Source: Vanrija pseudolonga
Taxonomy: Eukaryota; Basidiomycota; Tremellomycetes; Trichosporonales; Trichosporonaceae
DNA length: 64,000 nt
Assembly: GCF_020906515.1 (NCBI RefSeq)
Contig: NC_085851.1
Location: 930,001-994,000, forward strand
Reading direction: 5' to 3'
Positions 43,961 to 64,000 of this stretch are shown here, in pieces. The translations under genes were made by a program, and so were the position numbers. The notes under the pieces are model-generated. The model was not told the DNA's origin. It ran no database searches and saw nothing but the letters and a program-made list of their open reading frames with translations. Position 1 is the stretch's first letter, and each line of letters opens with the position of its first letter.

Positions 43961-45054
43961 CTATCGCTCCAAAGGGCCAGTGTACCACAGGCGGCCGGCA
44001 CGGAGCCAGTCGTCGCGAAGTGCGCGAGCTTCGGCGCCGTCGGCAGTGTTCCCAATGACGCCCGCGACGTGCGCCCACTCATCCTTACGCTCGGCGTGCT
44101 TGAGGAGCAGGTCGAACTGCTCGGCAGACAACACGTCGTCGTCGGCGCAGTAGTGCAGGATGCGCCTCAGTACAGGGGTAGGCAGTTTTAGCAGCGTGCT
44201 AGGGTGGCACCGCGTGCAGGTGCGGCACGGGCACGGCTGCTCGCCGCGCAGCGCGATGCGTGCGGGGACGAGCACGCGGAAGACGGCGCGGCGGGTCCGG
44301 CGTGCGAGCTGGTCGTTGCGGCGCAGGGTGTCGATGATGCCGCGGTGGGTTTGGTTGCCTGGCGGAGCGAGGCGCGTCAGCGCCGAAGCCGAGCCGAGCC
44401 CCGACTTCTCGTCCTCTCCCCAACACGCCACTCACCGAGGTCCAGCTCGCCGACATGGCTGAGCGTCTTGTGCCCCCTCACAGCCACCTCGACCGCGCGG
44501 AAGAAGTAGTCCCTGTCCGCTGCAAGCACACGGGGCAGCGCAAGCGCTTCGAGGCCGGCACAGCGGCGCAGCCAGCGCGCAAAGCTCGGTATGCTGTCGC
44601 GCGGCAGGTCGAGGTCGAGCTCTAGCGCCGCGGCGGAGACAGTGAGGCCGGCGAAGAGGTGCTCGAGGGTCAGGGGGTCGCCTGCACGCAGGGAGAGCTT
44701 GAGGCGCGGCAGCGGGGGGCAGCGCTTGAGGTGTTGCGTGATGTTGTCGACGTCTTCGACCTGACGCGGTCAGCGACAAGCACGGAGGGAGGAGGGGGCC
44801 GCAGTGGCCACTCACCGCACGCAACCTTGCACTGAACTGATACCCCCGATCATAGTAATCCCGCTCCGTAACAAACCCGTCGAGCAAGCTGCGCGCGAGC
44901 GGCCGCAGCGCCGCGAGGGGGTTGACCTCGGGGTCCGGCTGGCCGAGCCAGACGAGGCGCGGGGCCGCCGGCGGCGTCTTGATCCCCAGTATGGGGTCTG
45001 CGTGGTATCAGCGCTGTCGAGGACGATACACGTACGGGCGCTCGGGATGACCAT
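43961..45054 (-). CDS. Family 2 (LRR-like, Cys knuckle, F-box-like) protein, copy A
   Basis: Exons 45054-45036 (19 nt), 44997-44816, 44760-44436 and 44358-43961; 307 residues. The very short first exon and the intron before the LRR-like part match copies C, F and G. Order: P-I-L-G-I start, N-P-L-A-A-L-R-P-L, an LRR-like middle (L-P-R-L-K-L-S-L, L-E-L-D-L-D-L-P), then R-R-A-V-F-R-V-L-V-P-A-R-I, the Cys knuckle C-P-C-R-T-C-T-R-C-H, and the C-terminal domain L-P-T-P-V-L-R-R-I-L-H-Y-C-A-D-D-D with D-D-W-L-R-A-G. First of nine copies and one of two on the minus strand. No known function; the C-domain resembles an F-box helix set. Confidence 0.7.
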
Positions 45055-45764
45055 TAGGTGGGGTGGGTTGGAACGAGAGACAGAGACAGTGTTGTTGGTT
45101 CGTCCACAATGCTTGGCGGCATGTGCGAGTTCGACGACGCTCGGTGGCGTATTTCGGTGGAGGCGGTGCCCCGCGGCGATGGGGTGGTGGTGGCGACTGG
45201 GGGGGGGGGGGGCGGCGCGGAGCTCGGCGTGTAGTAGGCGTCGTCGGCGGCGGCGGCAGCGACACACAGGCAGTGCGGGCGGCAATACCGATACCGGCGC
45301 AGTGCTGTGGTACACGGACGTCCACGATCACGCCTGTGCTGTGAGGGCACTTAAAGGACAGCATGGCGCGCCTCGACCATTGTGCGCGATAACAATACGG
45401 TGCAAGCGGTGCTCGACGCCGGCCGCCGACAACGACGATGACGACGGCGGCGACAACAACAGTAGTAACAACAACAATAGCAGTAGCGACTTACTCGACG
45501 ACCTCAATACCCCATCCCCCTACACTCACACCTCCTTGCTCTCCCCCACTGGTACCATCTCCGAACCCGTCCCTCCCCCCCCCCCGTCAACGACCATCAC
45601 TCGGCCATCTCCACCACCTCCCACCCCGCACGTCTCGTGCGTCTGACCACCTTTCTTCCTTCCTTCCGTGACGCGCTCGTCTCAACTTGACCCCTCACCA
45701 CCCCATTAGCACCATACCACACCTATCGCCCCTCTCCCTCGCCCCCCTCTCCGCCGCACGCAGC
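45055..45764. promoter_or_regulatory. Divergent spacer between family 2 copies A and B, 710 bp
   Basis: Both copies start away from this region. It carries a run of about 14 G at roughly 45199-45212, (GGC/GTC)n triplets at about 45235-45262, ACAACAACAATAGCAG repeats near 45470-45485 and CT-rich tracts (45540-45760). A shared promoter is likely; no specific site is named. Confidence 0.5.
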
Positions 45765-47037
45765 ATGGACCAGCAGCAGCAGCGCGCGCAGGCCCCGCCG
45801 TGTGAGTTGCGCCGCGCAGGCGCGTTGCGTTCGGCCAAGCCGCCGCCAGGGCCGCTCATCCTCTTCCCCGGCGCCGCCGCTGACCCCGGAACTACTGTCT
45901 CTCTGTCGTCCGCTGTGCCCTCGGCCTCGTCGTTGGCTCTGACCCCCGCCTCGTCGCGCCCCACCACGCCCCTCCTCGCTCCCTCCTCGCCCCTCGCTAC
46001 CCCGCCCACGACGCCGCGCTCCCGCACGCCCCGGTCGTTCCGCTCACGCCGGACAGATCGCGACCTGCGCATCGCGGCGTTTGGTCGCGTGCCCGCGCTC
46101 GACTGGCCCCCTGTCGGCGAGCCGACGCCCCCGCCTAACCCGCTCCGCGCGCTCACCCCGCTCGCGGCGCGCCTCGGCGGGCTCACCGGCGCCGTGCCCG
46201 GCGACAAGGGCTTCTTCAGCTTTCATGCCCCGCTCCAAAGCGTGAGTTGGCTCTGCGCGAGGGAACGCTAACTCCCCAGCTCGCCGATATCCCTGCCATC
46301 CTCCACGTCCTCGCGGCCTGCCCCATCACGCAGGTCAGCATCACGCTCGTCGCGCAGGACCCTGGCGCCACGCAGCTCCTGTTCGACGAGCTCACGCTCC
46401 CCGTCGGCATAAGCTACGTCGACCTCAGCGCGATGAACCTCCCCCGCGCGGCGATACCCCAGTTTGCCGACTTTCTGCGCCGCTCGTACGCGTCCGGCGT
46501 CGAGACGATACTCGTCCCCAAGGCCGCGTTCGCGGACCGCGCGGCGCTCATGGCGGCTGTGAGCGGTGTCATCGAGGCACACCCCACGCTCGAGCACATC
46601 AGTGGGTATTGAGCGAGCTCTGCGAGCGGGTGCTCATGCCCGCAGACCTCGCGAGCGCCCATGTCCCCACGCAGCGCAACCTGGCCGCCAAGGCCGCCGC
46701 GCGTGTCGAGTTCAGATACCTCCTCGACATGGCGCGCACGCTCAGCCACGTCCGCTGCGACTGCAAGATCTGCACGCGCGCGCATGCGCTCGAGTTTGGC
46801 CGGTCCCACGCCAAGCGTCTCCCGCCGCGCGCGGTGCGTCGTATCCTCGAGTTTGCCGCGTACCGGTTCACGCCGGCGCAGGTGGGCCGCATCTGCGACT
46901 ATGCGCAGAACAAGGCCGAGTGGGCTGTCGTGGCCGCTGCGCTTGCCTCGCACCGTGACGTCGGACATCGTGAGCATGCGGCCGCCGCCGATGAGTGGAT
47001 ACGCAACGGGGGGTTCTTTGTTAGGCGCGGGATGTGA
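45765..47037 (+). CDS. Family 2 protein, copy B
   Basis: Exons 45765-46241, 46280-46601 and 46646-47037 (introns 38 and 44 nt) give 396 residues. It starts M-D-Q-Q-Q-Q with a long Ser/Thr/Pro-rich N-terminal region that replaces the micro first exon of other copies. P-N-P-L-R-A-L-T-P-L corresponds to N-P-L-A-A-L in copy A. The LRR-like middle includes I-S-Y-V-D-L-S-A-M-N-L-P. The Cys knuckle is C-D-C-K-I-C. The C-domain runs L-P-P-R-A-V-R-R-I-L-E-F-A-A-Y with the Q-x3-I-C-D-Y-A-Q-N-K-A-E-W helix and ends D-E-W-I-R-N-G-G-F-F. No W-W end. Confidence 0.68.
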
Positions 47038-47421
47038 GTTGCGAGGAGGCGTGGGGTGAGCGAGCGTGGAGCAAGTGGCATGAGTAGACGCCAAGGAGTG
47101 TAGACGCGTAGACGTCGTGACAAAACCCTGTGGACATTGTGAGCACGAAGTTGTTTGTAGCGTCGTGTGTGTGTGTGCAGCGTGTAAAGAGCCACATCTG
47201 CTGCGTTGGGTGACATTGAGCGAGGCAACAACACTGAACCCACTCACCAACTCACCACTGCAACCAACGGCCCACCGCCGAGATCCGAACCCCGAACAAC
47301 CCTTCACCCCAGTTGACCCGGCCGGGGCCCGCACTCGGCAACACCAATAAATCACAGCCGACCATCACAAGCCCTCGCTGACAACTAGTGTTGCCTCGTC
47401 GGCCATCCCCTCCACCAGCCC
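47038..47421. other. Intergenic, 384 bp
   Basis: Between family 2 copy B and the second NUDIX gene, same strand. Contains a GTGTGTGTGTG tract at about 47166-47176. Nothing else is recognised. Confidence 0.4.
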
Positions 47422-48637
47422 ATGCTCCTCCTCGCGCGCAGGCTAGTCGCCCAGCGCTCGTCGTCTTCGTCTCTTCTTCTCGCTCCAGCAATATCAGCAC
47501 GCAGCATGTCGACAAAGCCAGCAAAGCGCACGCCGCCCGAGGCGCGGCCCTCGTCGTCGTGAGTGGGGCGCCCACCTCTCTAGCCACAGCTAACCCTCCC
47601 CCAGCATCATGGTCGTCTCGCCGACCAACCAGCTCCTCCTCCTCCAGCGCGTCGCCGCGTCGTCGTCCTTCGCCTCGGCGCACGTCTTCCCAGGCGGCAA
47701 CCTGTCAGAGTACCACGAGACGGTGCCTGCTGTCGGCACGCCGGGGCGGCACGTCGACGGCGAAGCGTACCGTCTCGCTGCGATCCGCGAGACGTTCGAG
47801 GAGAGCGGCATCCTGCTCGCGCACGCCAAGGGCGGTGCGGCGGGCCAGTTGTTGCCTATCACTGAGGCGCAGCGCGACGAGGGGCGCGGGCTCGTGCATG
47901 GCGATAAGAAGCGGTTCACCGAGTGGCTTGACAGTGTCGGCGGTGTTGCTGATGTCGGTACGTAGCGGCGAGGGACGCAATGTTGCTCAATTACTCGCAA
48001 TCGCTCCCCCGCTGACACACCCCCAGACGGCCTCATCCCCTTCACGCGCTGGATCACGCCCGTCCAGGTCCCCAAGCGCTTCACGACGCAGATGTACGTC
48101 TACTTCCTGCCGCTGTCGACGCGCGTGTCCTCCAAGGAGATTGTGCACACGCCGACGCACGACGGGGGCAAGGAGCACACCGAGGCCGTGTTCGCCGACC
48201 CGGGGACGTGGATTCAAGCGGCCGGCAAGGGCGAGGTCATCCTCTTCCCGCCCCAGCTGTACCTGCTGCACCTGCTGTCCGACTTCCTCGGCCCGAACCA
48301 CGGCACAGACTATGCGGCACAGCGCGCGGCGCTCGTCGAGTTCCTGCACAAGGTGCCCACTGGCCCCTCGGACCACCCGCTCGGCCGCATCTCGTGGGCG
48401 GACAAGTGTATCTCGCCCGTCGGGCTGCCCATCACCCGCAAAGACGGCCGCGCGACCCTCAACCTCGAGGCGCCGGGCCTCGAGCTCAAGGGCTCCACCC
48501 GCGGAGGCGACCACGACCGCGTCGTGCTCGTCTCTCGCCTCACGGGCGGGCCGGGCACCCCGGGCCCGACGAACGTCGAGGTGCGGTGGAGGGACGAGGC
48601 GCTCAAGGAGGGCGTGCGGAACGAGGGCAAGTTGTAA
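47422..48637 (+). CDS. NUDIX hydrolase, NUDT19-like, with mitochondrial-type N-terminus
   Basis: Exons 47422-47558, 47605-47957 and 48027-48637 (introns 46 and 69 nt) give 366 residues. The core is a clear paralogue of the gene at 36747: both have S-P-T-N-Q-L-L-L-L, S-S-x-F-A-S-A-H-V-F-P-G-G and R-E-T-F-E-E-S-G-I-L-L, and both introns sit at the same codons. Differences are at the ends. The first 30 residues (MLLLARRLVAQRSSSSSLLL...) are Arg/Ser/Leu-rich without acidic residues, a likely mitochondrial presequence. The C-terminus is N-E-G-K-L, at best a weak peroxisomal signal. Probable acyl-CoA or CoA pyrophosphatase of mitochondria. It interrupts the family 2 array. Confidence 0.88.
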
Positions 48638-48998
48638 GGGGGCAGAAGGAGCAGAGTGACATGGAGCAACACGTGGATGCGCCGGGATTCCTACATGCAC
48701 ATAGCAGAAGACATAAGACATGTACGTTGTAGAAGACGACGAGGACGTTGTCGTTGTTGGGCCGTTGTTGTGGCCAGCGCGCCTTATCACGTCAGTGGCC
48801 ATCCCTTAGTGCCAAGTCGGTGGTGCCGATCGCTCGCCAGCGATTCCAGACAGTGCAGTGGCCGACTCGCCGCCCAGCGCACGACCTATCTTTCGTGATC
48901 TCGTCTCGTCACTTCTTCCCAACACCCACTCCACTCCACTCGCACCGCACACCTATGACAACGTTCAACATCCGCGAGCTCTCATCACACACATCACC
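48638..48998. other. Intergenic, 361 bp
   Basis: NUDIX 3' flank and promoter of family 2 copy C; CT/CA-rich near 48910-48998. Nothing else seen. Confidence 0.4.
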
Positions 48999-50364
48999 AT
49001 GAGGACAGAGGAGATTGAGCGCCGGCGCAGAGTCCAGGCCGAGCTGGACCGGCAGCGTGAGTCAGCGACGGCGCTGGGCGTTTGTTGACGATCGATAGCC
49101 CATGGCTTGTTTATCTCGGTCGTGCCGCGCGACCCGCGCCTCGAGTGGCTTTCGAATGGACGTGAGGGCGAGCGAGATGGCACCCCTCAGCCGGCCACAT
49201 CCCCCATCGCACCCCTCCTCGAACACTGGTCGCTCCACCCCGACCCCGCGCCCCCCGTCACGGCCGACTGGGCACCAGCGCTCGCGCCCATCAGGCTTGA
49301 AGGGCTGTGGCATACTGTGAGTTGTGTGGGGGCGTTCGTTGCGATGTGCCGAGTCCCGCGGCGTGCGAGGAGAGCAGGCTCCCGGAGCCCTCTGCCCGCG
49401 GCACCCTCGCTGACACTCTCCTCCTCGCCAGGTCGCCGACCTCGAAGCCCTACTCGCCTGCATCCCCCGCGCCCCCCTCGCCTCGCTCAAGATCCAGTAC
49501 TGCGACCAGCCCCACGTCGTCCTCCCGCGCTTCCTCTCCCTCCTCCAGCCAAACACGCTCCGCCTGCTCGAGCTCGAGCTCCACCTCCCGCCCAAGGCCG
49601 TCCCCGCCCTGCTCACCTACCTGTCCTCCCCGCGCTCCCTGGGGCTCGAGTACCTCCTCCTCACGAGCATGGAGTACATGTACGTCCTGGACGCTGGCGT
49701 CGGCAAGGACCCCGACGTGTGCAAGCAGGACGCGTGGGCCGCGGGCTGGGTCAAGTCGTCGGGCGCGCCGGGCATCACGGCGCTGCTGGCCGCCAACACG
49801 TCGCTGCGGGCCATCTGCCGCAACCAGTGCGGCAAGCCAAAGCACCCCTTCCCGCCAGAATGTACCTGCAAAGCCCAGCGGTACTTTGGCCCCAGGCCTG
49901 ACCCGGGCCGGTGGCACGCGCACGACGAGCTCTGGACAGGCTTGGATCGCAACGCGGAGTACGGGCAGCGAGCGCGCCGAGCCGCGCTCCGAGCGTTGGG
50001 CGTCGCGAGGGTGCTCGTCTCGGCTGTGAGGGACGACGCCGACCCGACGACGACGACGGCCGGCGCCGAACCCCCGCGGGGCTCGAAACACCTCCTCGAT
50101 CTCCCCCGCGAGGTCCTGTGCCATATTGTGCGCTTTGCGTCGGGCGACCCCGCGGCGCTGAGCTCGGGCCAGGTGAACCGGCTTATGAAGTACGCCGAGG
50201 ACCGCAGCGCATTGAAGCGCGTCGCCGAGGTGGTGGCGACTGAGGGGAGCGATGGCGTAGAAGAGCGAGTCAAGGAGGCGTGGTTGGCCGCCGGTGGGTT
50301 CTGGTGGGATGGCCCCCCAGAGCCGCCAGCTGCAATCGTGAGCACGCCAACGCCTGCGCAGTGA
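48999..50364 (+). CDS. Family 2 protein, copy C
   Basis: Exons 48999-49056 (58 nt), 49099-49316 and 49432-50364 (introns 42 and 115 nt) give 402 residues. Order: short charged N-terminus (R-T-E-E-I-E-R-R-R-R), G-L-F-I-S-V-V-P-R-D-P-R-L-E-W, an S-P-I-A-P-L-L segment, LRR-like L-L-E-L-E-L-H-L-P-P with R-S-L-G-L-E-Y-L-L-L, then the full knuckle C-R-N-Q-C...C-T-C. L-D-R-N-A-E-Y-G-Q-R-A-R-R-A-A and L-G-V-A-R-V-L-V lead to the C-domain L-P-R-E-V-L-C-H-I-V-R-F-A with L-S-S-G-Q-V-N-R-L-M-K-Y-A-E-D-R. It ends W-L-A-A-G-G-F-W-W plus a short tail. Confidence 0.72.
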
Positions 50365-50712
50365 CTCGCTCCTCCACCCCTCGCACCCGGCACACGCGCC
50401 GCCTTGTACTCGTAGCCGGTGGATGGATTGTCACGCTCAGGACCGATTCGGCGCGCTAGGCCGCAACGCGTCCTCGATCGCCCGCCTGGGGAAACGGACA
50501 AGAAGCAAGCAAGCATCAAGTAGCTCACCCCGCACTCACTGACGACGTCACGACCCACCTGGGCCTCTCACCGGCTACTCGCCGCTTGGGTGACGCTCGA
50601 GCACCAGCCCCTGCCCCACGCCACCTGGTGGTGGCCCCAGCCCATCCCTCCCCAAATCGTCTCATCGCACATCTACATACTCACAACAAACTGACTGACA
50701 ACGACGACGGCG
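50365..50712. other. Intergenic, 348 bp
   Basis: Between family 2 copies C and D. No gene, repeat or RNA recognised; the last 60 bases are a CA-rich leader. Confidence 0.4.
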
Positions 50713-52059
50713 ATGCGGCGAGGCAAAGGTGTGCGTGGCGGCGCGTCGGCGTCCCCGCTCGGGATGACCTCGGCGCGCGCAACGGCAGGATCTAACGGCA
50801 GCCCCCGCTCGCCACGGTCCCCGCGCAGTCCTCCACTAGCAGTGTCACCCTACTTGGCGCCGCATGACGACCACCCGGCAGGATACCTCCAGCTATCGTT
50901 TGCGACGGCGCAGCGCGGGCTCGGGTGGGACGACGACGACGACGAGAACGAAAACCTGCTCGCGCCGCTCATCGCCTTTGCGCAGGTGTACCGCCACGCC
51001 TTGAGAGAAGTTGACGTCGGCGGCGTGCTGGGTCACGAGGGCGAGCGCGTGCCCTGCTTCACAGTGACGTGGTATGATGTGAGCGGCGGCGGCGTGAGCT
51101 GGGTGGAGTGTGTCGTGTGTGGGTTTGGCTGACGTGCCGCAGCCAGTCGAGTTCCACAACCTCGTTGCGGCCATCAAGGCGGCCAAAATCACGGGCCTGA
51201 CTATCCGGCAAGCGGACACGCCGGCGTCGGTTGCGCAGCTGGTCGACCACCTCGATGTGCCGTTAATGAGCCTCGATATCCAGGACCTGGGGGACGACGC
51301 TGGGCCAATGGAACCGCTGTATACCTCACTCGCGAGGTTTCTCTCCACACCACGCTCGGCGGCACTGCATACGCTGGCATTCTGCCCAAAGCCTCACTTT
51401 CCCGTTGGCGACTTGTTGCATACGATCACGCCAGCAGTGGCACAACACAACGGATCACTACAGGTCGTCTGCCTGCGGGGCTGCCTCACCTCGTCCTTAC
51501 GGTGCAACTGCCTCTCGGTGCTGGCTCACGAGAGCCCCGTCGGCGAAGTGGTCGAGGACTATGACTACCTCGAGAGCCTACTACGACGAAATGCGGTCCG
51601 GACACAGCGCGTGCGCCGTGCCGCGCTCCAGGTCCTCTGTGCCGCCCGAATCGTCCTCAACGGCCGCCCGGCGCCACAGAGGACGGTACGCCGCCGTCAC
51701 TGCCGGCCGTCCACCCGCTCATGTGCCTGCCAGAACGCGTCGCGAGCCACATCCTCATGCACGTCATGGTGCCGGCGCTGCTCGACGCGCTGTGGTGGTA
51801 CCAGATTGACGCGGGCGTGCGGGCCGCGCCGTTCCGCATCCTGTCGCTGCCGCCCGAGCTCATTTGCCATGTGCTCGGGCTCGCGGCCGACGAGCCCCAC
51901 CTTCTCTCGGTGGACCAGGTGCGCCGCATTTGCCGCTACGTGATCAACGCGCGCGCCATGGCTGGCATGTCGGCGGCGCTGGCGGACGGCGTCGAGGACA
52001 GAGTGCGCGCCGAGTGGCTGGCCCGCGGGGGCATGTGGTGGAGTGCTGGGTGCGAGTAG
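50713..52059 (+). pseudogene. Family 2 protein, copy D, with an apparent frameshift
   Basis: Exon 1 is 50713-51078; a 64-nt intron (51079-51142) leads to a second frame with the LRR-like middle and the knuckle C-L-R-G-C...C-N-C, then L-R-R-N-A-V-R-T-Q-R-V-R-R-A-A-L and A-A-R-I-V-L-N-G. Near 51660-51690 the reading frame must shift, with no credible splice pair, to reach the frame with two L-P boxes (L-P-E-R-V-A-S-H-I-L and L-P-P-E-L-I-C-H-V-L-G-L-A) and the usual end W-L-A-R-G-G-M-W-W. Either the copy is decayed, the sequence has an error, or splicing is unusual. It also has an extra L-P helix box not present in other copies. The N-terminus is Arg/Ser-rich with an S-P-R repeat. Confidence 0.62.
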
Positions 52060-52308
52060 GGTCTGTCGTGCTGTGGCCGCTGCTGGTGGACTCTGCCATC
52101 TGTTGTATGTGTACCCTGTGATGCAATGTATCATGTCGTGTCGTGTGAGGGTGTGGTGTCGTCGGCGCGCACTGTGCGTGCGGCATTGTCATCCCTGTGG
52201 TGCGTGCAACAACAACAACAATCACCCACACCGTCGTCGGTCGCCACCGCGCACCGCCAACGACACAACACCTCTCTCAACTTGTGTCCACACTCCACAC
52301 CTCACTCA

Positions 52309-53667
52309 ATGCACTCGCTCAAGCTGGTCCTAGCGACCGTAGTGGGCGGGCTCGAGTGGTCGTCAGCGCCAGCACGTCCTAGCAGACCCCCACCCCCAGC
52401 GTCGCCCAGCACCCTCCCGGCCGTCTTCTTCGACCCCGCGACGGACGATAACCCGCTCGCGCCGCTCCTCTCGCTCCCAGAGCACAGCGACAACGTGCGC
52501 GTCAAACTCGGGGGCATGCAGCGCGTCCGCGGACTCGGGGGGCTCGCGCACCCCGTCCTCACGATCGAGTGGGAGTGGGACGTGAGTGACGCGTGCCTGG
52601 CACAGCTGACCCCCGCGCAGGACAACGAAGACCGCCGCGTGCACGCCGCGCTCAACGCGTCGCGTATCGCCGGCATGGTGCTTCTCTACGCCGACAGCGG
52701 TGAAACGTTGTTCAACTTTCTCGACGCGCTCGCCGTGCCGACGCTGCGGCACCTCGACCTCCGGCCGTGGCCTGACGCGTTGGCCGACGCCGGGGACATG
52801 ATCTACGTCTCCAAGCTGCTCACGTACCTGCGTATCGGGCGGGCAAGGTTGCACACGCTCGTCGTCCCGAGGCACCGCAAGCTCGTCCGCTACCTCGCAC
52901 TGGTGCTCGTGCAGCCGGCCGCAGGCTTCACGCTCGAGAACGTGTGCGCCGGCATGTGCGAGCTCGTCCGCGCGTACCCCAACGACCCCGAGGAAGTCGA
53001 GTGGCCCGCGCCGTCGACTTACCCGCTCGAGTGCTTTTGCGAGGTCACTCCCACACCCAGCGGCGAGCCGGTGCACATTCACCTCCGCACAATATCCCAG
53101 GTCATGCGGCGAAACGCTGGGCTGAATGCCCGTGCGAGGGCCGCGGCGCTCAGGATGCTCGTCGTCGGCCGGGTGCTGTTCCACGCCAGCCTGGCGTGCG
53201 AGGACGACTCCGAGGCGGACGAGGACGAGGAGATGGCCGCGACTACCGCGTCGTCGTCGGCATCACCGCGACACGCTGCAGACAGCGACGACGAGCCGCC
53301 GCACAAGCGCAGCAAGGCGACCCACGCCCCGACCCCCGACGCCGTGTCGCCCTCGCGCCTCGGCGAGCTCCTCCTCAGCCTCCCAGCCGAAGTCCTCGAG
53401 ATCGTCGTCTCCCACACGGCGCCAGACGACGCCCTGACCGACGAGCAGCGCCTCCGCGTGCTGGCGCACGCGCGCGATCGGCGCGACCTCGCGCGCGTGG
53501 CGGCGACCTTCGCCGCGGTGCGCCGTCACAGGCCAGAGAGCGAGCGTCGCGCGCGCGACGAGTGGCTCGCGAACGGCGGGGTCGGGTGGGATATCCGCAC
53601 GACGAAACAGCGCAAGCCGGACCGTCTGGTCATTGACAACGTCTTTGCGCTGAGACATGAGGACTAG
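52309..53667 (+). CDS. Family 2 protein, copy E, with acidic insert
   Basis: Start at ATG 52309 just after a CA-rich leader; upstream in-frame codons are open but unlike protein. A 39-nt intron (52582-52620; GTGAGT...GCTGACCCCCGCGCAG) is frame-neutral but falls after W-E-W-D, where copies D, F and G have their intron after W-x-x, so I model it as spliced (439 residues). N-P-L-A-P-L-L, LRR-like L-R-H-L-D-L-R-P-W, knuckle V-C-A-G-M-C...C-F-C and R-R-N-A-G-L-N-A-R follow. A linker with E-D-D-S-E-A-D-E-D-E-E and basic H-K-R-S-K precedes the C-domain L-P-A-E-V-L-E-I-V-V, which ends D-E-W-L-A-N-G-G. Confidence 0.7.
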   Translation: MHSLKLVLATVVGGLEWSSAPARPSRPPPPASPSTLPAVFFDPATDDNPLAPLLSLPEHSDNVRVKLGGMQRVRGLGGLAHPVLTIEWEWDVSDACLAQLTPAQDNEDRRVHAALNASRIAGMVLLYADSGETLFNFLDALAVPTLRHLDLRPWPDALADAGDMIYVSKLLTYLRIGRARLHTLVVPRHRKLVRYLALVLVQPAAGFTLENVCAGMCELVRAYPNDPEEVEWPAPSTYPLECFCEVTPTPSGEPVHIHLRTISQVMRRNAGLNARARAAALRMLVVGRVLFHASLACEDDSEADEDEEMAATTASSSASPRHAADSDDEPPHKRSKATHAPTPDAVSPSRLGELLLSLPAEVLEIVVSHTAPDDALTDEQRLRVLAHARDRRDLARVAATFAAVRRHRPESERRARDEWLANGGVGWDIRTTKQRKPDRLVIDNVFALRHED

Positions 53668-53881
53668 AGCAGAAGTGTACGAAGTGGATGTAGTTGTTGT
53701 CGATGGTCCTTGTCGCGTGGCATGACGTCGGCCATCCCCGTGACCTCCTTGTTGTGATTCGGATTTCCGGTTCGACCGGTGCCGGAATCCTTCGAGGCCG
53801 TTATCTGGAATTTTTGGCCACCCGGCGGATAACATTGACGACGACGATGCAGAGAAGCTTGAAACTACTCACACACTGACG

Positions 53882-54955
53882 ATGAGCGGTGTCGAGACAG
53901 GTGAGCTTGGGTTGGGTGGTGCATCGCTGACCCGCAGGCTCTATCACCGTCGCGCTCGTGCCCGCGCTCCCCGGCTTGGGGTGGGGAGACGACCTTGCCG
54001 CCGAGACCACCGATCCGTTCGGCGCGGTGCGCGCGCTCCCGCCGAACCTCGCGAAGGAGATCAAGGCTGCCCGAGCCGCAGGGCACGGCGCCGAGCTGTT
54101 CCCCTGCTTCGAACTCTCGTGGGCTAACGTGCGTACGCTGTCACGACCGAGCTAACCTCCTAGGCCAGCGGCCTCGCCACCGTAGCCAACGCGCTCGGCG
54201 CGACCCGCGTCTCCGCCCTGGCCGTCACCGCCGTGTCGTCCGAGGATGCCCTCACCGCCCTCCTCCCACGCCTGCACCTCCCGACGCTGCAGACGCTCGA
54301 GTTCCGCCTCCTCGCGTCCCCGAGCAGCGAGTACGTCGACTTTCCCTACCCGACCCTCCTGGACCCCAAGGCGCTCGGCATCCCGATCGCACCCCTCGCT
54401 GCCCTGCTGGCGGGCTCGCGGGCGCGCGCACTCGCCAACGTCGTCCTGCGGCCTATCGTGCCCAACATGCTCGCGAGCCAGAAACGCACCGCGGACGAGT
54501 TCCGCGCGCAGCTTGTACAGGCGCTGCCGCAGGGCCACGGCCTGGACGGGGTGTGCGTTGGCCTCTGTGCCCTCCGCTCCGCGGACAAGTGGGACGACCT
54601 TGCGGGGTGCAAGTGCGCCAAGGCGGTAGAGAAGCACTTCAGCGACGCCAGGCGCAGAGGGCGCGCGTCGGCCGCGAGAATCCACGCCGCGTCCGCGGTG
54701 CTCCTCCATGCGGAGCGGGACGACCCGGCCCGGGCGTGCCCGCTCTTCGAGCTCCCGTACGAGCTGCTCGAGAGCGTGCTGGCGTACACTGCGCAAGACG
54801 ACGTGCTCGACGAGCGGCAGGTGCGCGGGGTGATCAAGCAAGCCGGGGATCGAGATACGCTGCGCCGCACGCTCGGCGCGTTTGCGCGGCACGCCGCCGC
54901 CGGCGTGCCGAGGTCGCGTGCCATCACCGAGTGGTGCGTCAACGGCGGGTTGTAG
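53882..54955 (+). CDS. Family 2 protein, copy F
   Basis: Exons 53882-53900 (19 nt), 53938-54128 and 54164-54955 (introns 37 and 35 nt) give 333 residues. The 19-nt first exon equals that of copy A in size and phase. Order: S-I-T-V-A-L-V-P-A-L-P-G-L-G-W, F-E-L-S-W-A-N at the second splice, LRR-like L-P-T-L-Q-T-L-E-F-R-L-L, knuckle V-C-V-G-L-C...C-K-C, then A-A-R-I-H-A-A-S-A-V-L-L and the C-domain L-P-Y-E-L-L-E-S-V-L-A-Y-T-A-Q-D-D. It ends E-W-C-V-N-G-G-L without the aromatic pair and lacks the usual R-N-A motif, so it is the shortest intact plus-strand copy. Confidence 0.7.
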
Positions 54956-55211
54956 GTTCTTTTTCGTTGTAAATACCCATTGTATGCCACTGTTGCTGTG
55001 CTTCCGACGTCTCCTCTCTGCTCGCTGCTCTGTCGTCGTGGTCGTCGTCGTACATGCATACAGCGAGTACGCAGTGCAGAGGACACTGTTCGAGAAGGGT
55101 GCCACGTGCCCTCGGTTATTTGGTTCCGACGGCGCCAAGTAACGACGACACACCAGTGCACCAGGATGGATCGCATCTCCACATCGCATCTCCTCCCTAT
55201 TCCTCACCACC

Positions 55212-56575
55212 ATGGACGAGACAGAGAGTGAGTGCTTGCTGCACGGCCCCACTGACGCCAGCCACCAAGACGCTCTTCCTCGGCGTCGTGCCCCAGGCGC
55301 CAGAGGTCCAGTGGGGTGGCGAGGAGCCCTCGCTCGCCCCCCTATCCACCATCCTCACGCCGCTGCCCTCCATCTTCGTAGAGGACACGGACGCCGACTC
55401 GCCCCTCTCGCAGCCTTTCATCACGCTCTCAGGCGACTGGACCACCGTGAGCACGCCCTGTCCCTCTGTCAAGCTGACACCGCCAGACGGGCGACCTCGA
55501 CAACCTCGCGCGCGCGCTCTCAGCCACCCCGCTCGCAGGTCTCCGCTTCCAGGCCTGCGCCGGCGTGCATGCCGTCCTGGCGCACCTGTTCGCCTCGCCC
55601 CTCTTCGCGCCGCTCGCAGGCCTGCGCGTCCTCGAGCTCGACATGCACCTGCCCCCGTTCGTGTTCGACGCGCTCTTCGCCTTCGTGGGGTCGGAGCGCT
55701 GCGCGCTCGAGCACCTCATCCTCAACGCGTCGGCGTACGAGCTGCCCAAGCTCGCGGCTGCGATAGAGAAGGGCAACACGACCATCCGCACCGTGTGCGC
55801 GCACGGCGGGCTGCTCGGCGACGTCGACGTCTCGGGCGGCTCCAGGCCGAAATGTACCTGCGCCACCGACTGGTTTGAGCGCAAGCTCGTCAACGAGATG
55901 GCCGGCCCGTCGACGAGCCTCGGCATGAGCCGCCTCGAGCGCGTGCTCGCGCGGAACGCGTTCCTCGCGCTCCATGTCGTTCGGCCTGCTGCGATCGAGA
56001 CGCTCGTTGCGGCGCGCGTGCTCCTCAACGCCGCGGCGGGAGACGACCCCGACGATACAAAGGGCAAGCAACCCGCCTCGGCGCCGCCGATCCTCGAGCT
56101 CCCGCAAGAGCTCTTAACCCACATTGTTGGGCTGGTGCCGAACCCCGTTGCGCTCAGCGACACGCAGGTGCTGCGTATTATCCATGCCGCCCAAGGCAAG
56201 TTTGGCGCGCTGGCGCCGTATGCGCGCAACAAGCCGCGCGCAAAGGACGAGTACCTAGCCACCGGAGGCATGGTGTGGGACCGCGGCATACGCGCCGCGA
56301 ACGCGCTCGCGCACAAGGTCGACCTCGCGCCGCGCGACCGCGGCGCCATAGCGTTCGGGCTACGCGCGGCCGACCTGGCCGCGTTCGCCGACGCGGGCAT
56401 CGGCGGCGTCGGTAGCCCCGCGTACGATCCCTACGTCGCGCTCATGGACCTCGCGGGGGATAGCTGGGCCGACGACGGGCTCGAGGCACAGCTCGGCGCC
56501 ATGATTGACCAGTTTGTCGAGCCGCCGCCTGGCGACTGGGGCGAGGACTGGAATACCGGCGCGGTGGGCGCGTAG
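55212..56575 (+). CDS. Family 2 protein, copy G, with C-terminal extension
   Basis: Exons 55212-55227 (16 nt), 55262-55446 and 55487-56575 (introns 34 and 40 nt) give 429 residues. The start M-D-E-T-E-T-T joins L-F-L-G-V-V-P-Q-A-P-E-V-Q-W, matching copy C's V-V-P-R-D-P-R-L-E-W. The LRR-like part has L-R-V-L-E-L-D-M-H-L-P-P. The knuckle is reduced to V-C-A-H...C-T-C. L-A-R-N-A-F and A-A-R-V-L-L-N-A precede the C-domain L-P-Q-E-L-L-T-H-I-V-G-L-V and E-Y-L-A-T-G-G-M-V-W. About 100 further residues follow with acidic and Gly/Asp-rich text that no other copy has. Confidence 0.72.
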
Positions 56576-56820
56576 GGGGGTGGCAAGCCCGAATGCATGC
56601 TGAATGTGCCCGGCTTGACTGACTCGTACTTGCGCCACTGAACGGTGTCTGAGGTGCAGTGCCTCCTCTGACCATGATTGAAGCCCCACGACCTAGCGAT
56701 AACGAAACTGTTCATCTTTCAAGGTTATGGAACTGTACGAAGCGAATGTGTGTAACGAACGAATGTGGGGAAGGAACGACTGCGTGCCAGCACGCGGGCA
56801 GAAAAGAAGGTGGTGGGATT

Positions 56821-58857: not shown

Positions 58858-60528
58858 GGTGTGTTGAAGGATGGGGAAGAGACGTTGGACGCCGTGTCCT
58901 TCTTATGGCCTCGAGCGCATGGCTGTTTTGTGCGTTCTGCCCACCAGCAGCAAACACCACGGCGAGGGGAAGGGGTAAGGTGCTGCCCAGCACCTTGGCA
59001 TGACTGCGGGGGTTGTCACCAGCTTCCGAGGTGCCACCTCCTCCTGGCCGTGCCGGGGCCGAATCGCGCCTGAAACTGCCGCGACCAAGGGTATGGATAC
59101 TGTGCGCCTAGGCCCGGAGCGAATGCCTCGGGGTTGAGGGTTGCACGCTTGACTTGGCTGCATCCGACGCGTCAGTTGGGCCGCCGACGCCGTAATGGGG
59201 ATCGGGATCGAGGGTGAAACGCGCCGGCGTCGCACGCGTGCTTGAGTAGACGTTTTCGAAGCTGGCCAGCACACCTTGTTCCGCGTGCCTGCAGCTCTCA
59301 GACCGATCCACCAACCCCTCGGATCTCGTCATCAGCTGTAACTTGACGACCGGCGGCAAGGGGGCAGAGTGAGACACGGCGAGGTGATGCCGCCGGCGAC
59401 GCATACACGGCGAGTTGAGAGCGTGTGGCGCGTGTGTCGACATGTGGTGTCGACGTCTTGTTCCATTTTCGTGTCAGTTGTCGGTCAGTCTCGAGCGCGT
59501 CTGGCTCGTCGTGTTGTGTGTAGACAAGTCAGCGTGCAGTATGCAGGGGTGAAGAGGATGGGAGATTGGCGGCGTGCTGGGATCGGCGGGCCGCGGCGTC
59601 TGTCGAGTGAGAGATGGTGACCCGTTCCTCGATGTCAAGACAACAACACCACCTCCATCTCTTCACTTGCGCACTTTGCGATGCAGCTCAAGGTCCAGAC
59701 TTGATCGTATCAGCGCAACGTGCACCCCCCGCAGCGCACAGCGCTCGCCCCACAGTGCCCCGCCAACGCCGCACAGCTCGCTGCGCTCAGCCCCACCGCC
59801 CCACATGCTTCGTCGTCCTCGTCCTCGTCCTCGTCGACGCCAGCTGACTTCCTGTCCTCTTCGCCTACTTTACCGGCCTCTGTGAAAATCATTTGGCAAC
59901 TCCGGCTCACAATTTTCGAATGCGGATGGTGTCCGCCGCTACCGCCGTCATCGTCGTCGTCGACGCCGCCATGATAATCGGTGGTGGCGAGGTCGCGCTC
60001 GTCGCCATCACTACCAACTCACACTAACGACTCACACCACACATTACACCACTACCGCGCAGAGCGACGGCCCCCTCCCACAGCCTCACTCTCATTCTAC
60101 TTATGGGCCTCACACCCCCCTGCTCGTCCCCCAACCTCGGCGTCCTTCGATCCAGCGCTTCCCTCCTCGCCACAACAGCAGTGAGGGGCAGCTGGCTGCC
60201 TCCTGTCGCTGCGAGCGTCCTCCCACGACCTGTAACACACCGCACCCCGCGCCTTCTCCGGCCCCCGACAAGCCCACACTCGGCATTCTTCACGCCCAAC
60301 GCGCCGAAACACCCGGCCCTCGTACGCGCGAGCGCTGGAACGCTCGGGCTCGGCATCGCGTCAACGCGTGGCCTGTCGTCGCAGGCCCTCGTCCCCGTTC
60401 CCATCACAGCTCCGCCACCACTCCTTCCAGTGCCAGTGGCAGATCCCGAGCCTCAGACGACCACCCCAACACCCACCTCACTTCCCATCTATCACCCTGC
60501 GATCCCAAGAGTCGGCCTTCCACCCACC
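58858..60528. other. Divergent intergenic region, 1.7 kb
   Basis: Separates the DUF1996 gene (minus) from the Ser/Gly-repeat gene (plus), so it holds both promoters. The part from 59640 is C/CT-rich with TCGTCGTCCTCGTCC-type triplets near 59811-59840. A plus-strand frame is open upstream to 60103, but I do not use it because a signal peptide starts at 60529. Confidence 0.45.
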
Positions 60529-61785
60529 ATGCGCCCCGCGACTTTCCTCGCCGCCCTCGCCGGCACCGCTGCCATTCCGCTCCACCTAGCTCCACTCCCG
60601 CGCCTGTTTGTTCAGCGCGCAGAGGTCTCGCCGCCCCCGTTTGAGCTACCCGTCGAGCTTGCCGCGGCGAACAGTGGTGCCGTCATCACACCCAAGCCTG
60701 AGATAGCGGACTCGGGCGCACACGACAAGGCTGTCACCAACGCCACGGCAGCCCCTGCCGCTGTCTACGCCGCGACAACCGGCGGCGCGGGATTCACTGG
60801 TTCTCACAACCCCGCCAAGGCGCACCAGTCCGGTGCACCCCACCATTCCAAGGGCGGCAGTGGCGGCGCGCCGCCAGCGTCCGTTGTCCCCAACGCCACT
60901 GGCCCCGGTCTCCTCACCAAGTCGTCGTCAAAATCGTCGACCTTCAACGCTACGGACCGCAAAGGCAAGGGCAAGGGCAAGAAGGGTAAGGGCAAGGGTC
61001 ACTCTGGCTCTGGCTCTGGCTCTGGCTCTGGAGGCAGCTCGGGCAGCAGCTCAAGCTCAGGCTCAGGTGCAGGCTCCTCAGGCTCTGGATCCTCTGGTTC
61101 TGAATCCTCTGGCTCGGGCTCCTCGGGCTCCTCGGGCTCCTCTGGCTCCTCTGGCTCCTCTGGCTCCTCTGGCTCCTCTGGCTCCTCTGGCTCCTCTGGC
61201 TCCTCTGGATCCTCTGGCTCCTCCGGGTCTGGATCGTCCGGCTCAGGCTCCTCTAACTCGGGCTCCTCTGGCTCCTCTGGATCGTCCGGCTCAGGATCCT
61301 CTGGTTTGGGCTCCGGCTCCGGCTCTGGCTCGGGCAGCGGCCCAAGCGGCGGCTCCAACGACTTCGCCACGGGCGTCGCGACCGGCGTTGCTACGGGCGC
61401 GGCAGCGATCGGGACGACGGCCGGCATCACAGCGGCGACTGGCCAGGCGACGAGCCTCGCGGCCAACGTGGACGCCGCTACGGGCGGTGGGTGCGCCCCC
61501 ACTGGCGGTGTCGCTGCTGCCACTGGCGGCGCGACTGGCGGCGGCGCGACTGGCGGCGGAGCTACTGGCGGCGGCCTCACTGGGGCCGTCGCTGCCGCTA
61601 CTGGAGGTGGAGCGACCGGCGGAGGCGCGACGGGTGGAGGAGCGACTGGCGGCGGCGCTACTGGCGGCGGAGCGACAGGTGGAGGTGCCACTGGCGGCGG
61701 AGCAACGGGTGGCGGAGCGACCGGCGGAGCCACTGGCGGCGGCGACACCGCTGCTGCCACCGCCGCCGCGACTGGCTCAGGCTAA
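60529..61785 (+). CDS. Secreted Ser/Gly- and Gly/Ala/Thr-repeat protein
   Basis: A single exon encodes 418 residues, starting at ATG 60529 where a signal peptide begins (M-R-P-A-T-F-L-A-A-L-A-G-T-A-A). Residues about 30-145 are a Pro/Ala/Thr region with N-A-T and N-A-T-like glycosylation sites, followed by a Lys-Gly track (KGKGKGKKGKGKG). From about residue 161 come roughly 35 S-S-G or S-G-S units, then a hydrophobic Ala/Thr/Gly stretch, then about 15 units of G-G-G-A-T. No known domain. It may be a wall or capsule-associated structural protein; that is a guess from composition. Confidence 0.72.
   Translation: MRPATFLAALAGTAAIPLHLAPLPRLFVQRAEVSPPPFELPVELAAANSGAVITPKPEIADSGAHDKAVTNATAAPAAVYAATTGGAGFTGSHNPAKAHQSGAPHHSKGGSGGAPPASVVPNATGPGLLTKSSSKSSTFNATDRKGKGKGKKGKGKGHSGSGSGSGSGGSSGSSSSSGSGAGSSGSGSSGSESSGSGSSGSSGSSGSSGSSGSSGSSGSSGSSGSSGSSGSSGSGSSGSGSSNSGSSGSSGSSGSGSSGLGSGSGSGSGSGPSGGSNDFATGVATGVATGAAAIGTTAGITAATGQATSLAANVDAATGGGCAPTGGVAAATGGATGGGATGGGATGGGLTGAVAAATGGGATGGGATGGGATGGGATGGGATGGGATGGGATGGGATGGATGGGDTAAATAAATGSG
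61014..61340 (+). repeat. Coding minisatellite of the 9-bp unit GGCTCCTCT (Ser-Gly)
   Basis: Near-perfect tandem copies of GGCTCCTCT or GGCTCTGGC encode S-S-G and S-G units. The central block 61128-61206 is almost identical copy to copy, so length variation between strains is likely. The opposite strand is open over the whole block only because the repeat has no stop in that frame. Confidence 0.9.
61524..61750 (+). repeat. Coding repeat of 12-15 bp units encoding G-G-G-A-T
   Basis: Units such as GGCGGCGGAGCGACT recur about 15 times with silent variation (GCG/GCT/GCC; GGC/GGA/GGT), so the protein repeat is better kept than the DNA repeat. Lies in the same exon as the Ser-Gly block. Confidence 0.85.
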
Positions 61786-62302
61786 GCACTATAACTAGCA
61801 CACACCGCGCTGGCCGCGAGCAACCCCGCTGGACGGGCAGTATGAAAGTATCCGCATGCATTGATTGCAGCATGGTTGCCGGTTGTTTGCCGGTGTGCGT
61901 TGGTGCCCGGCGTCGCGCCTGATTTCTCGGCCACGTCGTGTCGTGGTGGAGGTGGTCGGATAGTTGGACGAGACGGGCCGTCGCGCCGCGCCTCTCGTAC
62001 TCTTACTTTCATCATCAGAGGTATGTGCATGCTGATGCTGCAAACCAACACCCCCGTCCCCTCGCACCCACCCGCGTGCCGCTGACGATCCGAGCGTGCA
62101 GCGCTGTCACGGGCGGCCGGGACGTGTCAGCCCGCGTCGCCACGTCAGAGCACCGCAACGCCACGGGCATGCTCGACCGCAACGCGCGGCGGGTATTGCC
62201 GTCCATCATGTTGCCGCTGCTCTGTGTTCTGCATTTATCTTTCTTTGCTTCAACTCACATCTCACCACACCCACCCACCCACTCACGCACACTCTCTAAC
62301 CC
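61786..62302. other. Intergenic, 517 bp
   Basis: Between the repeat protein and family 2 copy H, same strand. CA/CT-rich leader at 62250-62302. Nothing else seen. Confidence 0.4.
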
Positions 62303-63551
62303 ATGGCCTCACCCCACGCCCAACTCTCCGACCCTCTTTCGTCCCCCCTCAACCCCATATTCGTCGCGCTCGGCCTGCGCGGCCGCGCGCCAGAGAGCAT
62401 CGCCGCGCGCGCCATGCTCCTCGCGGCGGGGCTGTACGCTATCCGCTACGTCCTCGGCGGCATCGTCACGGCGCTGGCGGCTATCGCGCTGGCGAACCTC
62501 TTCCTCGCGGCTCGGGACGACTCCAAGAAGACTGGTGAGCTAGACGTCGTGTTCGAGCTGACCCCAGACACCTTCGACATCGGCACCCCCCTCACGGCCT
62601 TTAGCAGACCCAGTACCCCTTGTACGTTGTCCCTTCTCGACCCCGCTGACGAAAGACACGATCGTACTCACCACCGCGGGCGACTGGCGCCCACCGTCCC
62701 CCCTCGCGGCGCTCGCCGCCGCCTCATCGCCCCTCGTCACGCGCACCCCCAACCCCACCCGGCACCGACTCTGGCTCCGGGAAGTGATCACCGAGACCGA
62801 GCCGCACATCGCCCACGGAAAACAGACGTACCTCATCAACGGCGACTTCGAGCTCACTCCCTGCTTCCCCGATAGCGAGGAGACCATGAAGGCGATCAAC
62901 GCGTCGCCCATCTCGTCCATGGCGGTGCTCACGACGTCCAACATCCCCGCGTTCTTCAAGCAGCTCGACCTGCCCTCCCTGCGCACCCTCGACCTGTCGG
63001 AATGCGGTAACAAGCTCGCTGGGTCGAGCGCGGAGATCGCAGAGTATCTCGCCTCCCCCCGCTCCCACGGCCTCGAAACCCTCATCCTATCGCCCATCCT
63101 CCACCCCGCCGACCATGAGCACGTCCTCCGCGGCGTGTCGGCCAACGCGACCCTCACGCGCGTCTGCTTCCTCATGTGTGGGCAGTCCAAGTGCTCCCCG
63201 TGTCCGTTTGGCCTGGGCGAGCAGTATCGCTCGACACTGGAGCGCAACGCTGGCCTGACGCACCGTGTCCGCCTCGCCGGCATCCAGACTCTTGTGCCCG
63301 CGCGTGTCCTCCTCAACGCGCACGCCATCACCCCGGCTTCGGTCCCCTTTGCCCGTCTCCCCCTCGAGATTGTCCTCAACATCGTCAAGCAGTGCGCCGA
63401 CGAGCCGGACGCGCTCACCCCTGCCCAGTTCGCCAAGCTGCGCCTGTTCGCCACCGACCGGGCAAAACAGACCCTCGTCCGTGGTGGCGGAGCAAGCGAG
63501 CTCGAGTACCGGTCCCGAGTCGCCGGCTTCTACTGGGACTGGGGCGTGTAG
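62303..63551 (+). CDS. Family 2 protein, copy H, with N-terminal membrane segment
   Basis: Exons 62303-62534, 62568-62621 and 62656-63551 (introns 33 and 34 nt) give 393 residues. Unlike the other copies, exon 1 encodes about 77 residues with one or two hydrophobic helices (A-M-L-L-A-A-G-L-Y-A-I-R and V-L-G-G-I-V-T-A-L-A-A-I-A-L-A) ending R-D-D-S-K-K-T. The remainder is standard: T-A-G-D-W-R-P, LRR-like L-P-S-L-R-T-L-D-L-S-E-C, knuckle V-C-F-L-M-C-G-Q-S-K-C-S-P-C, L-E-R-N-A-G-L-T-H-R-V-R, A-R-V-L-L-N-A, and C-domain L-P-L-E-I-V-L-N-I-V-K-Q-C-A-D-E-P. The membrane part could be a fused upstream gene, but the 33-nt intron has good signals. Confidence 0.7.
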
Positions 63552-63597
63552 TAGTAGTAACAGTATCACCACATAGACAGACATTGCATTCGTAGCG

Positions 63598-64000
63598 CTA
63601 GCGAGGGATGCCCTGCTCCCACACGAACCCACCGGTGTCGAGCCAACGGCTCATGAGTCTTGCAAACGAGGGGCGGTTGGCGGCGGCGATGGCATTGGTG
63701 GTGTTGGCGGCTGTAGCAAGTTGCGCCAGACTGGAGCGGTCCGCAGCATGCTCGAACAGGCGGCCCCACTGGGCTGGGCTCAGTGCCATGGGGTCATCCG
63801 AGACGTATTGCAGGATGAGGTGGACGACCTCGGGAGGAAGGGAGAGGAACGTCGTCGTCGCTGGGGGTTGACGGGCCGGGGGCGTAGGTGACCACTCTGG
63901 CGAGAGGTGGGGCGTGTGTGTCGTCGTCGCGACGCGCAGCAGTGGCCCACGTCTTCTCGAACGACTGCGACTGCGCGACGCGAGACGGACCTTGGCGGCT
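63598..64000 (-). CDS. Family 2 protein, copy I, C-terminal part (5' end outside window)
   Basis: The frame is open from the window edge to TAG at 63598-63600, giving 133 visible residues. A basic Arg/Ser stretch and a Thr/Pro-rich linker lead into the C-domain L-P-P-E-V-V-H-L-I-L-Q-Y-V-S-D-D-P with L-S-P-A-Q-W-G-R-L-F-E-H-A-A-D-R and the end W-L-D-T-G-G-F-V-W. It converges on copy H with 46 bp between the stops. The rest of the gene, including the knuckle, lies beyond position 64000. Confidence 0.72.
   Translation of the reverse strand, partial: AAKVRLASRSRSRSRRRGPLLRVATTTHTPHLSPEWSPTPPARQPPATTTFLSLPPEVVHLILQYVSDDPMALSPAQWGRLFEHAADRSSLAQLATAANTTNAIAAANRPSFARLMSRWLDTGGFVWEQGIPR

What the first reader, a model, noticed from the sequence alone, without database searches (positions are those of the whole stretch)
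43961..64000. Tandem array of nine paralogues of an apparently undescribed LRR-like/Cys-knuckle/F-box-like family
Nine genes (A, B, C, D, E, F, G, H, I) share one architecture: very short first exon or N-terminus, a segment like V-V-P-x-x-P-x-x-x-W followed by an N-P-L-x-x-L box, LRR-like strands, a Cys knuckle, an R-N-A...R-R-A-A-L...A-R-V-L-L-N stretch, and a C-terminal domain L-P-x-E-[VL]-L-x-x-I-V...Q...A-x-D-R...W-L-x-x-G-G-x-W-W. Intron positions are shared. Copies are strongly diverged, so this is an old, actively diversifying array. I know no named family with this order; F-box proteins usually carry the box at the N-terminus.
Basis: partly seen in the sequence, partly recalled or inferred. 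Interest (0 to 1): 0.85.

Follow-up and report, generated by a model that had tools for sequence, protein, structure and literature searches.

The report
Yeast LRR / F-box-like gene array
A yeast carries a row of old, very different copies of one gene whose protein joins a curved binding surface to a small end piece that faintly resembles the part by which some proteins attach to the cell's protein-destruction machinery; dozens more copies sit elsewhere in the same genome, and I found no description of the family.

Summary
A C-domain profile built only from 41 family members outside the window picks out exactly the nine among 781 window frames, and one phase-0 intron sits at the same place in eight of nine. 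The array is larger than reported: 12 members in 27.7 kb, and at least 62 loci genome-wide, 45 on one contig. The genome is Vanrija pseudolonga. Named relatives found were all Vanrija, plus eight unnamed metagenome proteins. The middle is a ribonuclease-inhibitor-type LRR, degenerate in window members. The C-domain (LPxEVLxxI...Q...A.DR...EWL..GG) is predicted as four helices and resembles F-boxes weakly: better than 200 of 200 shuffles, but mainly through LPxE, and below Pfam cut-offs. The copies are old; 'actively diversifying' is not supported by the few orthologues found (7 of 50 genes). Best reading: an undescribed family of 'reversed FBXL' proteins, perhaps SCF substrate receptors. Family and architecture are shown; Skp1 binding is inferred.

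The parts
43961..45020 (-). Member A: LRR + hinge + C-domain (C-domain 43976-44194); N-terminal exon(s) not resolved; phase-0 intron 44761-44815
45765..47037 (+). Member B (C-domain 46813-47034); introns 45802-46056 (phase 1) and 46242-46279 (phase 0); a further frame change near 46600
48999..50364 (+). Member C, clearest gene model: introns 49057-49098 (phase 1) and 49317-49431 (phase 0); C-domain 50092-50313
   Evidence: agrees with V. albida P0001 and metagenome P0002
50713..52059 (+). Member D (C-domain 51838-52050); start uncertain; phase-0 intron 51079-51142; reading frame changes after about 51640
   Evidence: orthologue in second half of P0001
52309..53667 (+). Member E, one open frame; in-frame 39-nt phase-0 intron candidate 52582-52620; acidic linker; C-domain 53371-53595
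53882..54955 (+). Member F; introns 53901-53937 (phase 1) and 54129-54163 (phase 0); C-domain 54743-54952
55212..56575 (+). Member G; introns 55228-55261 (phase 1) and 55447-55486 (phase 0); C-domain 56090-56284, followed by a tail of about 95 aa
62562..63551 (+). Member H (open frame given; N-terminus unresolved); lacks the shared phase-0 intron by eye; C-domain 63348-63548
63598..64000 (-). Member I, C-terminal part (C-domain 63613-63849); gene continues past the window end, first ATG read at about C3:994742 (L019)

Best explanation
The nine genes belong to a large, old, apparently undescribed protein family of Vanrija yeasts (at least 62 loci in this V. pseudolonga genome; 12 in this array). 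Shown: common descent, shared gene structure, and the order ribonuclease-inhibitor-type LRR - long hinge helix - short linker - small helical C-domain starting LPxE[VL]LxxI, with a short N-terminal piece in those members whose 5' exons were read. Inferred: the LRR is the variable surface that binds a target; the C-domain is a derived F-box placed at the C-terminus whose first helix and preceding loop dock on Skp1, so that the proteins act as substrate receptors of SCF (cullin-1) ubiquitin ligases, an FBXL with its order reversed. Each copy would then have its own target.
Against: Without the LPxE columns the profile match to F-boxes falls to 14.4, reached by 1 of 200 shuffles and below an LRR-against-F-box control of 15.1, though it stays in register; true F-boxes, four against four, give 97.6. 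No C-domain passes a Pfam F-box cut-off (for 23 and 72 inferred from the best E-values), and none of the 23 PF00646 and 51 PF12937 matches of the genome at E up to 0.001 lies in a family locus (compared by eye). The domain has an extra helix ending EWLxxGGFWW. The C-domain fold was never compared alone; Foldseek with the whole C model gave 0 matches at E up to 0.001 (best 0.26), and VIA-align covered only the LRR part. No Skp1-binding evidence exists. In 4 of 11 orthologue comparisons the C-domain is less conserved than the rest (D 74% against 90%; C 88.6 against 89.0 and 94.3 against 96.3; L027 86 against 89), more conserved in 7, so the adaptor model gets mixed support there.
Confidence: 0.48

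Rival explanations
1. LRR proteins whose C-domain is a separate small helical domain, not an F-box: it mediates dimerisation or binds some other partner, and LPxE is a coincidental helix cap. The proteins are scaffolds or regulators outside the ubiquitin system.
For: F-box similarity is lost almost wholly when LPxE is removed; no Pfam F-box hit above cut-off; extra helix and EWLxxGG motif.
Against: The residual match stays in F-box register, and F-box models are the only recurrent Pfam hits, 10, 7 and 3 of 45 C-domains against 0 of 22 shuffled.
Confidence: 0.33
2. Receptors for self/non-self or parasite recognition (NLR-like LRR sensors), the C-domain being the signalling end.
For: Many clustered copies with variable LRRs; LRR part matches NLR LRRs in sequence and structure.
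Against: No nucleotide-binding or effector domain was listed for the members scanned; the orthologues found are conserved rather than turning over (7 of 50 genes only); no young copies among the 50.
Confidence: 0.1
3. A relic: the array is decaying, many copies are pseudogenes.
For: D changes frame relative to V. albida; H lacks the shared intron and its N-terminus is unclear.
Against: Long open frames, and no stop inside any of the listed matches; C and D are conserved in V. albida.
Confidence: 0.07

Closest known systems
FBXL (F-box plus LRR) proteins, SCF substrate receptors
   Different: Order reversed (LRR first, F-box-like domain last); C-domain below every Pfam F-box cut-off; extra helix and EWLxxGG motif
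Poxviral ankyrin/PRANC proteins with C-terminal F-box (PMC4353913, passages read)
   Same: Layout only: repeat domain, linker, reduced F-box-like domain at the C-terminus; multi-copy family
   Different: Ankyrin, not LRR; viral; no sequence relation was tested
Ribonuclease inhibitor / NLRP LRR domains
   Same: Same LRR type by profile and structure
   Different: Different attached domains; window members have short, degenerate LRRs
Pfam PF27087.1, precomputed on P0005 and P0006
   Same: Covers some part of two canonical-LRR members from V. albida and V. humicola
   Different: Not in the local Pfam copy; its extent, name and function are unknown to me; not shown for the other 13 proteins found

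Membership tests
F-box domain (Pfam F-box clan) | Score above a curated F-box model cut-off | tested here: not met
   Best E-values 0.0012 (PF12937), 0.0011 (PF13013), 0.083 (PF00646) among 45 C-domains (below cut-off inferred from E). Bits shown are all below cut-off; closest is metagenome P0007, PF13013 at 20.7 against 21.6. None of 74 genome F-box matches lies in a family locus.
F-box domain (Pfam F-box clan) | Homology to F-boxes at profile level | tested here: inconclusive
   prob 82 and 0 of 200 shuffles as good, but near noise without LPxE. Positive control, four F-boxes against four: prob 97.6. The F-box profile holds 8 of the 23 PF00646 matches (those with loci).
F-box domain (Pfam F-box clan) | Three-helix bundle | tested here: inconclusive
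   Four helices predicted at 226-236, 245-256, 258-271, 276-286 of the C exon; not superposed alone; fold searches tested only the LRR part.
F-box domain (Pfam F-box clan) | Binds Skp1 within an SCF ligase | not testable with these tools
   No interaction data
FBXL proteins | F-box N-terminal to the LRR | tested here: not met
   C-domain follows the LRR in both predicted models and lies at the C-terminal side of the exons aligned in A1
Ribonuclease-inhibitor-type LRR proteins | Repeated beta/alpha LRR units of the RI type | tested here: met
Poxviral PRANC proteins | Ankyrin repeats plus PRANC domain | tested here: not met
   No ankyrin or PRANC model listed for the members scanned at the E-value limits used

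The most novel reading that the evidence does not exclude
The C-domain is a new cullin-adaptor (Skp1-binding) module derived from, or convergent on, the F-box first helix, moved behind an LRR; Vanrija has built a private repertoire of some 60 'reversed FBXL' receptors with separate, long-conserved targets, beside its ordinary F-box genes.
Probability: 0.28. Interest if true: 0.68.

Novelty: new variant of a known kind. Interest (0 to 1): 0.44.

Why it matters
If the proteins are SCF receptors, a basidiomycete yeast holds a private set of ubiquitin-ligase receptors (at least 62 loci) about as large as its recognised F-box-like set (51 PF12937 matches at E up to 0.001; both lower bounds), missed because the F-box models fall just short. 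It would be a natural test of how little of an F-box is needed for Skp1 docking, and whether a receptor works with its order reversed. It is also a case of a gene family that expanded early in a genus and, as far as the orthologues found show, was then kept.

Tried and rejected
Rejected: 'actively diversifying' (the orthologues found are conserved; no young copies among the 50 exons). A single local origin of the array by tandem duplication is not supported: the 12 array genes need 12 changes on the tree (shuffled mean 11.1; well-supported branches force at least 3), though long branches leave this open. Transposon-borne copies: no shared DNA repeats were seen between family genes in the fetched loci (between loci, matches under 100 bp or at 99.5% identity and more were not printed, because some loci overlap). 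Fold searches were filled by the LRR part and no F-box domain match appeared for the C-domain; this is no evidence either way. PDB profile search with the C-domain alone gave nothing credible (best 0.03, HeliScrew4). Three protein searches found named hits only in Vanrija, but each scored only about 8,000 word-sharing candidates and missed many certain paralogues, so 'Vanrija only' is a statement about what was found; P0007, P0009 and P0015 have no close partner among the 50 tree genes and may come from other species. dN/dS was not done: no relative's DNA was at hand and the paralogues are too diverged. Literature: searches listed no paper that by title or abstract start describes the family (listings only); (PF27087) gave no paper. 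PMC12820176 and PMC7026411 were searched for terms inside the main text: no 'F-box', and no 'leucine-rich' or 'leucine'. Census rows left out for E above 0.001: 21 of 57, 5 of 62, 7 of 31; some are true members and came back through the local profile, others may be. One tree only, quick method, 34 of 61 inner branches under 80 support, 50 of the 62 loci.

Full report
What is there. The window is C3:930001-994000 of a 24.87-Mb, nine-contig genome. Fetched loci encode stretches identical to annotated Vanrija pseudolonga proteins: 248 of 305 aa of P0003 (LOC62_04G006222) in L029 and 399 of 417 aa of P0012 (LOC62_04G006109) in L025 (the rest lies in other exons or outside the frame). The genome is therefore V. 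pseudolonga (Trichosporonaceae, Tremellomycetes).

The nine genes. Six-frame reading shows nine copies, A to I. An HMM seeded with their C-domains and iterated over all fetched frames gathers 50 exons, the nine included, window E-values 3e-25 to 5.6e-11. As that is partly circular, I rebuilt the HMM from the 41 exons outside the window: it ranks exactly the nine first among 781 window frames, 1.9e-23 to 4e-6 (G weakest), the next frame at 0.26. The nine C-domains align with invariant L, P and Q and 27-41% identity to member C. An intron of phase 0 lies immediately before the first LRR helix in A, B, C, D, E, F, G and I, with GT at one end and CAG or TAG at the other; H lacks it by eye. A phase-1 intron lies shortly before the VVP-like strand in B, C, F, G. 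These models come from sequence alone; no transcript was seen. The V. albida protein P0001, a fusion of the C and D orthologues in one gene model, agrees with both introns of C and the phase-0 intron of D, and suggests that C and D are neighbours in that species too.

Beyond the window. Single-protein searches of the own genome and the local profile scan merge to 62 loci (whole-genome rows above E 0.001 and profile rows above 1e-5 were left out): 12 in this array (C3:973976-1001649, three of them in L019 past the window end), 45 on C4 in several clusters (9 at 307-328 kb, 7 at 2406-2425 kb, 11 at 2927-2950 kb and smaller ones), and one each on C1, C2, C6, C7 and C8. The tool calls such counts lower bounds. 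Other genes interrupt the array: NUDIX between B and C, DUF1996 and a Gly/Ser-rich ORF between G and H.

Relatives. Three protein searches returned 15 different proteins: V. pseudolonga (P0003, P0012), V. albida (P0001, P0005, P0013, P0014), V. humicola (P0006) and eight unnamed metagenome proteins. UniRef names P0001, P0006 and P0014 'F-box domain-containing protein' and P0013 'RNI-like protein'; I take these as automatic names. In the tree (66 rows, 50 own genes, quick method) P0001-C and P0002 join member C (100), P0001-D joins D (99), P0008 joins an L027 gene (99), P0011 joins L028 (100), P0014 joins L025 (100), P0010 and P0013 join another L027 gene (91), and P0004-P0006 join L033 (100): orthologues for 7 of 50 genes. 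P0007, P0009 and P0015 have no close partner among the 50. End branches have a median of 0.97 changes per column, and the highest paralogue identity is 52% over 103 aligned residues. The duplications behind these seven are therefore older than the split of the sampled Vanrija species. Identity before and in the C-domain: C against V. albida 89/89%, C against P0002 96/94%, L033 against V. albida 84/96%, V. humicola 81/88% and P0004 90/98%, L027 against P0013 89/86% and P0010 95/100%, L025 against P0014 65/76%, L028 against P0011 78/87%, L027 against P0008 74/88%, D against P0001 90/74% (49 and 66 residues only). In the array's DNA the only match between family genes is a 41-bp stretch. This is an old family; 'actively diversifying' is not what these data show, though they sample few orthologues and no selection test was run.

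Is the C-domain an F-box? For: hhalign against eight F-boxes found in this genome with PF00646 (L001-L008, 8 of 23 matches) gives probability 82 and score 27.4-27.8, with 0 of 200 column shuffles as high; and at E up to 1 only F-box-like (10 of 45), F-box-like_2 (7) and F-box (3) recur among Pfam families, against 0 of 22 shuffled domains. Against: with the LPxE columns removed the score falls to 14.4, reached by 1 of 200 shuffles, though in the right register, and an LRR segment of the same family scores 15.1; four true F-boxes against four others give 97.6. No Pfam cut-off is passed, and none of the 23 PF00646 and 51 PF12937 matches of the genome is a family locus. So the domain is F-box-like in its first helix, and membership is not established. 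That need not exclude Skp1 binding: in poxviral ankyrin proteins, which have the same reversed layout, a truncated F-box, in one case reduced to the first helix, still binds Skp1, and most contacts come from helix 1 and the preceding loop (PMC4353913, passages read).

Mechanism. Shown: a variable LRR joined by a conserved hinge to a better conserved C-domain (mean pairwise identity of 36 paralogues 24%, 32% and 31%, C-domain core 35%). Between orthologues the C-domain is the better conserved part in 7 of 11 comparisons and the worse in 4. Inferred: the LRR binds a client and the C-domain docks on Skp1, making SCF receptors. I give this 0.48, a non-F-box scaffold 0.33, immune-like receptors 0.10, and decay 0.07.

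Verdict. A real, larger than reported and apparently undescribed family; ordinary in kind (lineage-specific repeat-protein expansion), unusual in layout (LRR first, F-box-like last). Interest 0.44.

Noticed in passing
window 51560-51840 (member D): Reading frame changes between VLNGRPAP and PLMCLPERV although V. albida P0001 reads through; intron, sequence error or frameshift.
   Followed up: partly
window 53551-53591 and L019 about 6169-6209: A 41-bp stretch 95% identical between member E and an L019 member near the ...DEWLANGG end, although the genes show no other DNA match; conserved motif or small gene conversion.
   Followed up: no
G000 C3:4129877-4197174, C5:1573333-1586330, C7:2191725-2206353: Clusters of ordinary F-box-like (PF12937) matches, 10, 6 and 4 in number: separate F-box arrays in this genome.
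   Followed up: no
L024 9209-9479, L032 5058-5258, L034 1587-1857: Dispersed DNA repeats, 82-85% alike over 223-274 bp, near but outside the C-domain exons; possibly a transposon remnant.
   Followed up: no
window 62300-62575: Short hydrophobic ORF directly upstream of member H, no Pfam match; separate small membrane protein or first exon of H.
   Followed up: partly
window 60028-61785: Long Gly/Ser/Ala-rich low-complexity ORF inside the array, no Pfam match.
   Followed up: no
P0005, P0006: Precomputed Pfam PF27087.1 on two Vanrija relatives, newer than the local Pfam copy; may already model part of this family.
   Followed up: partly
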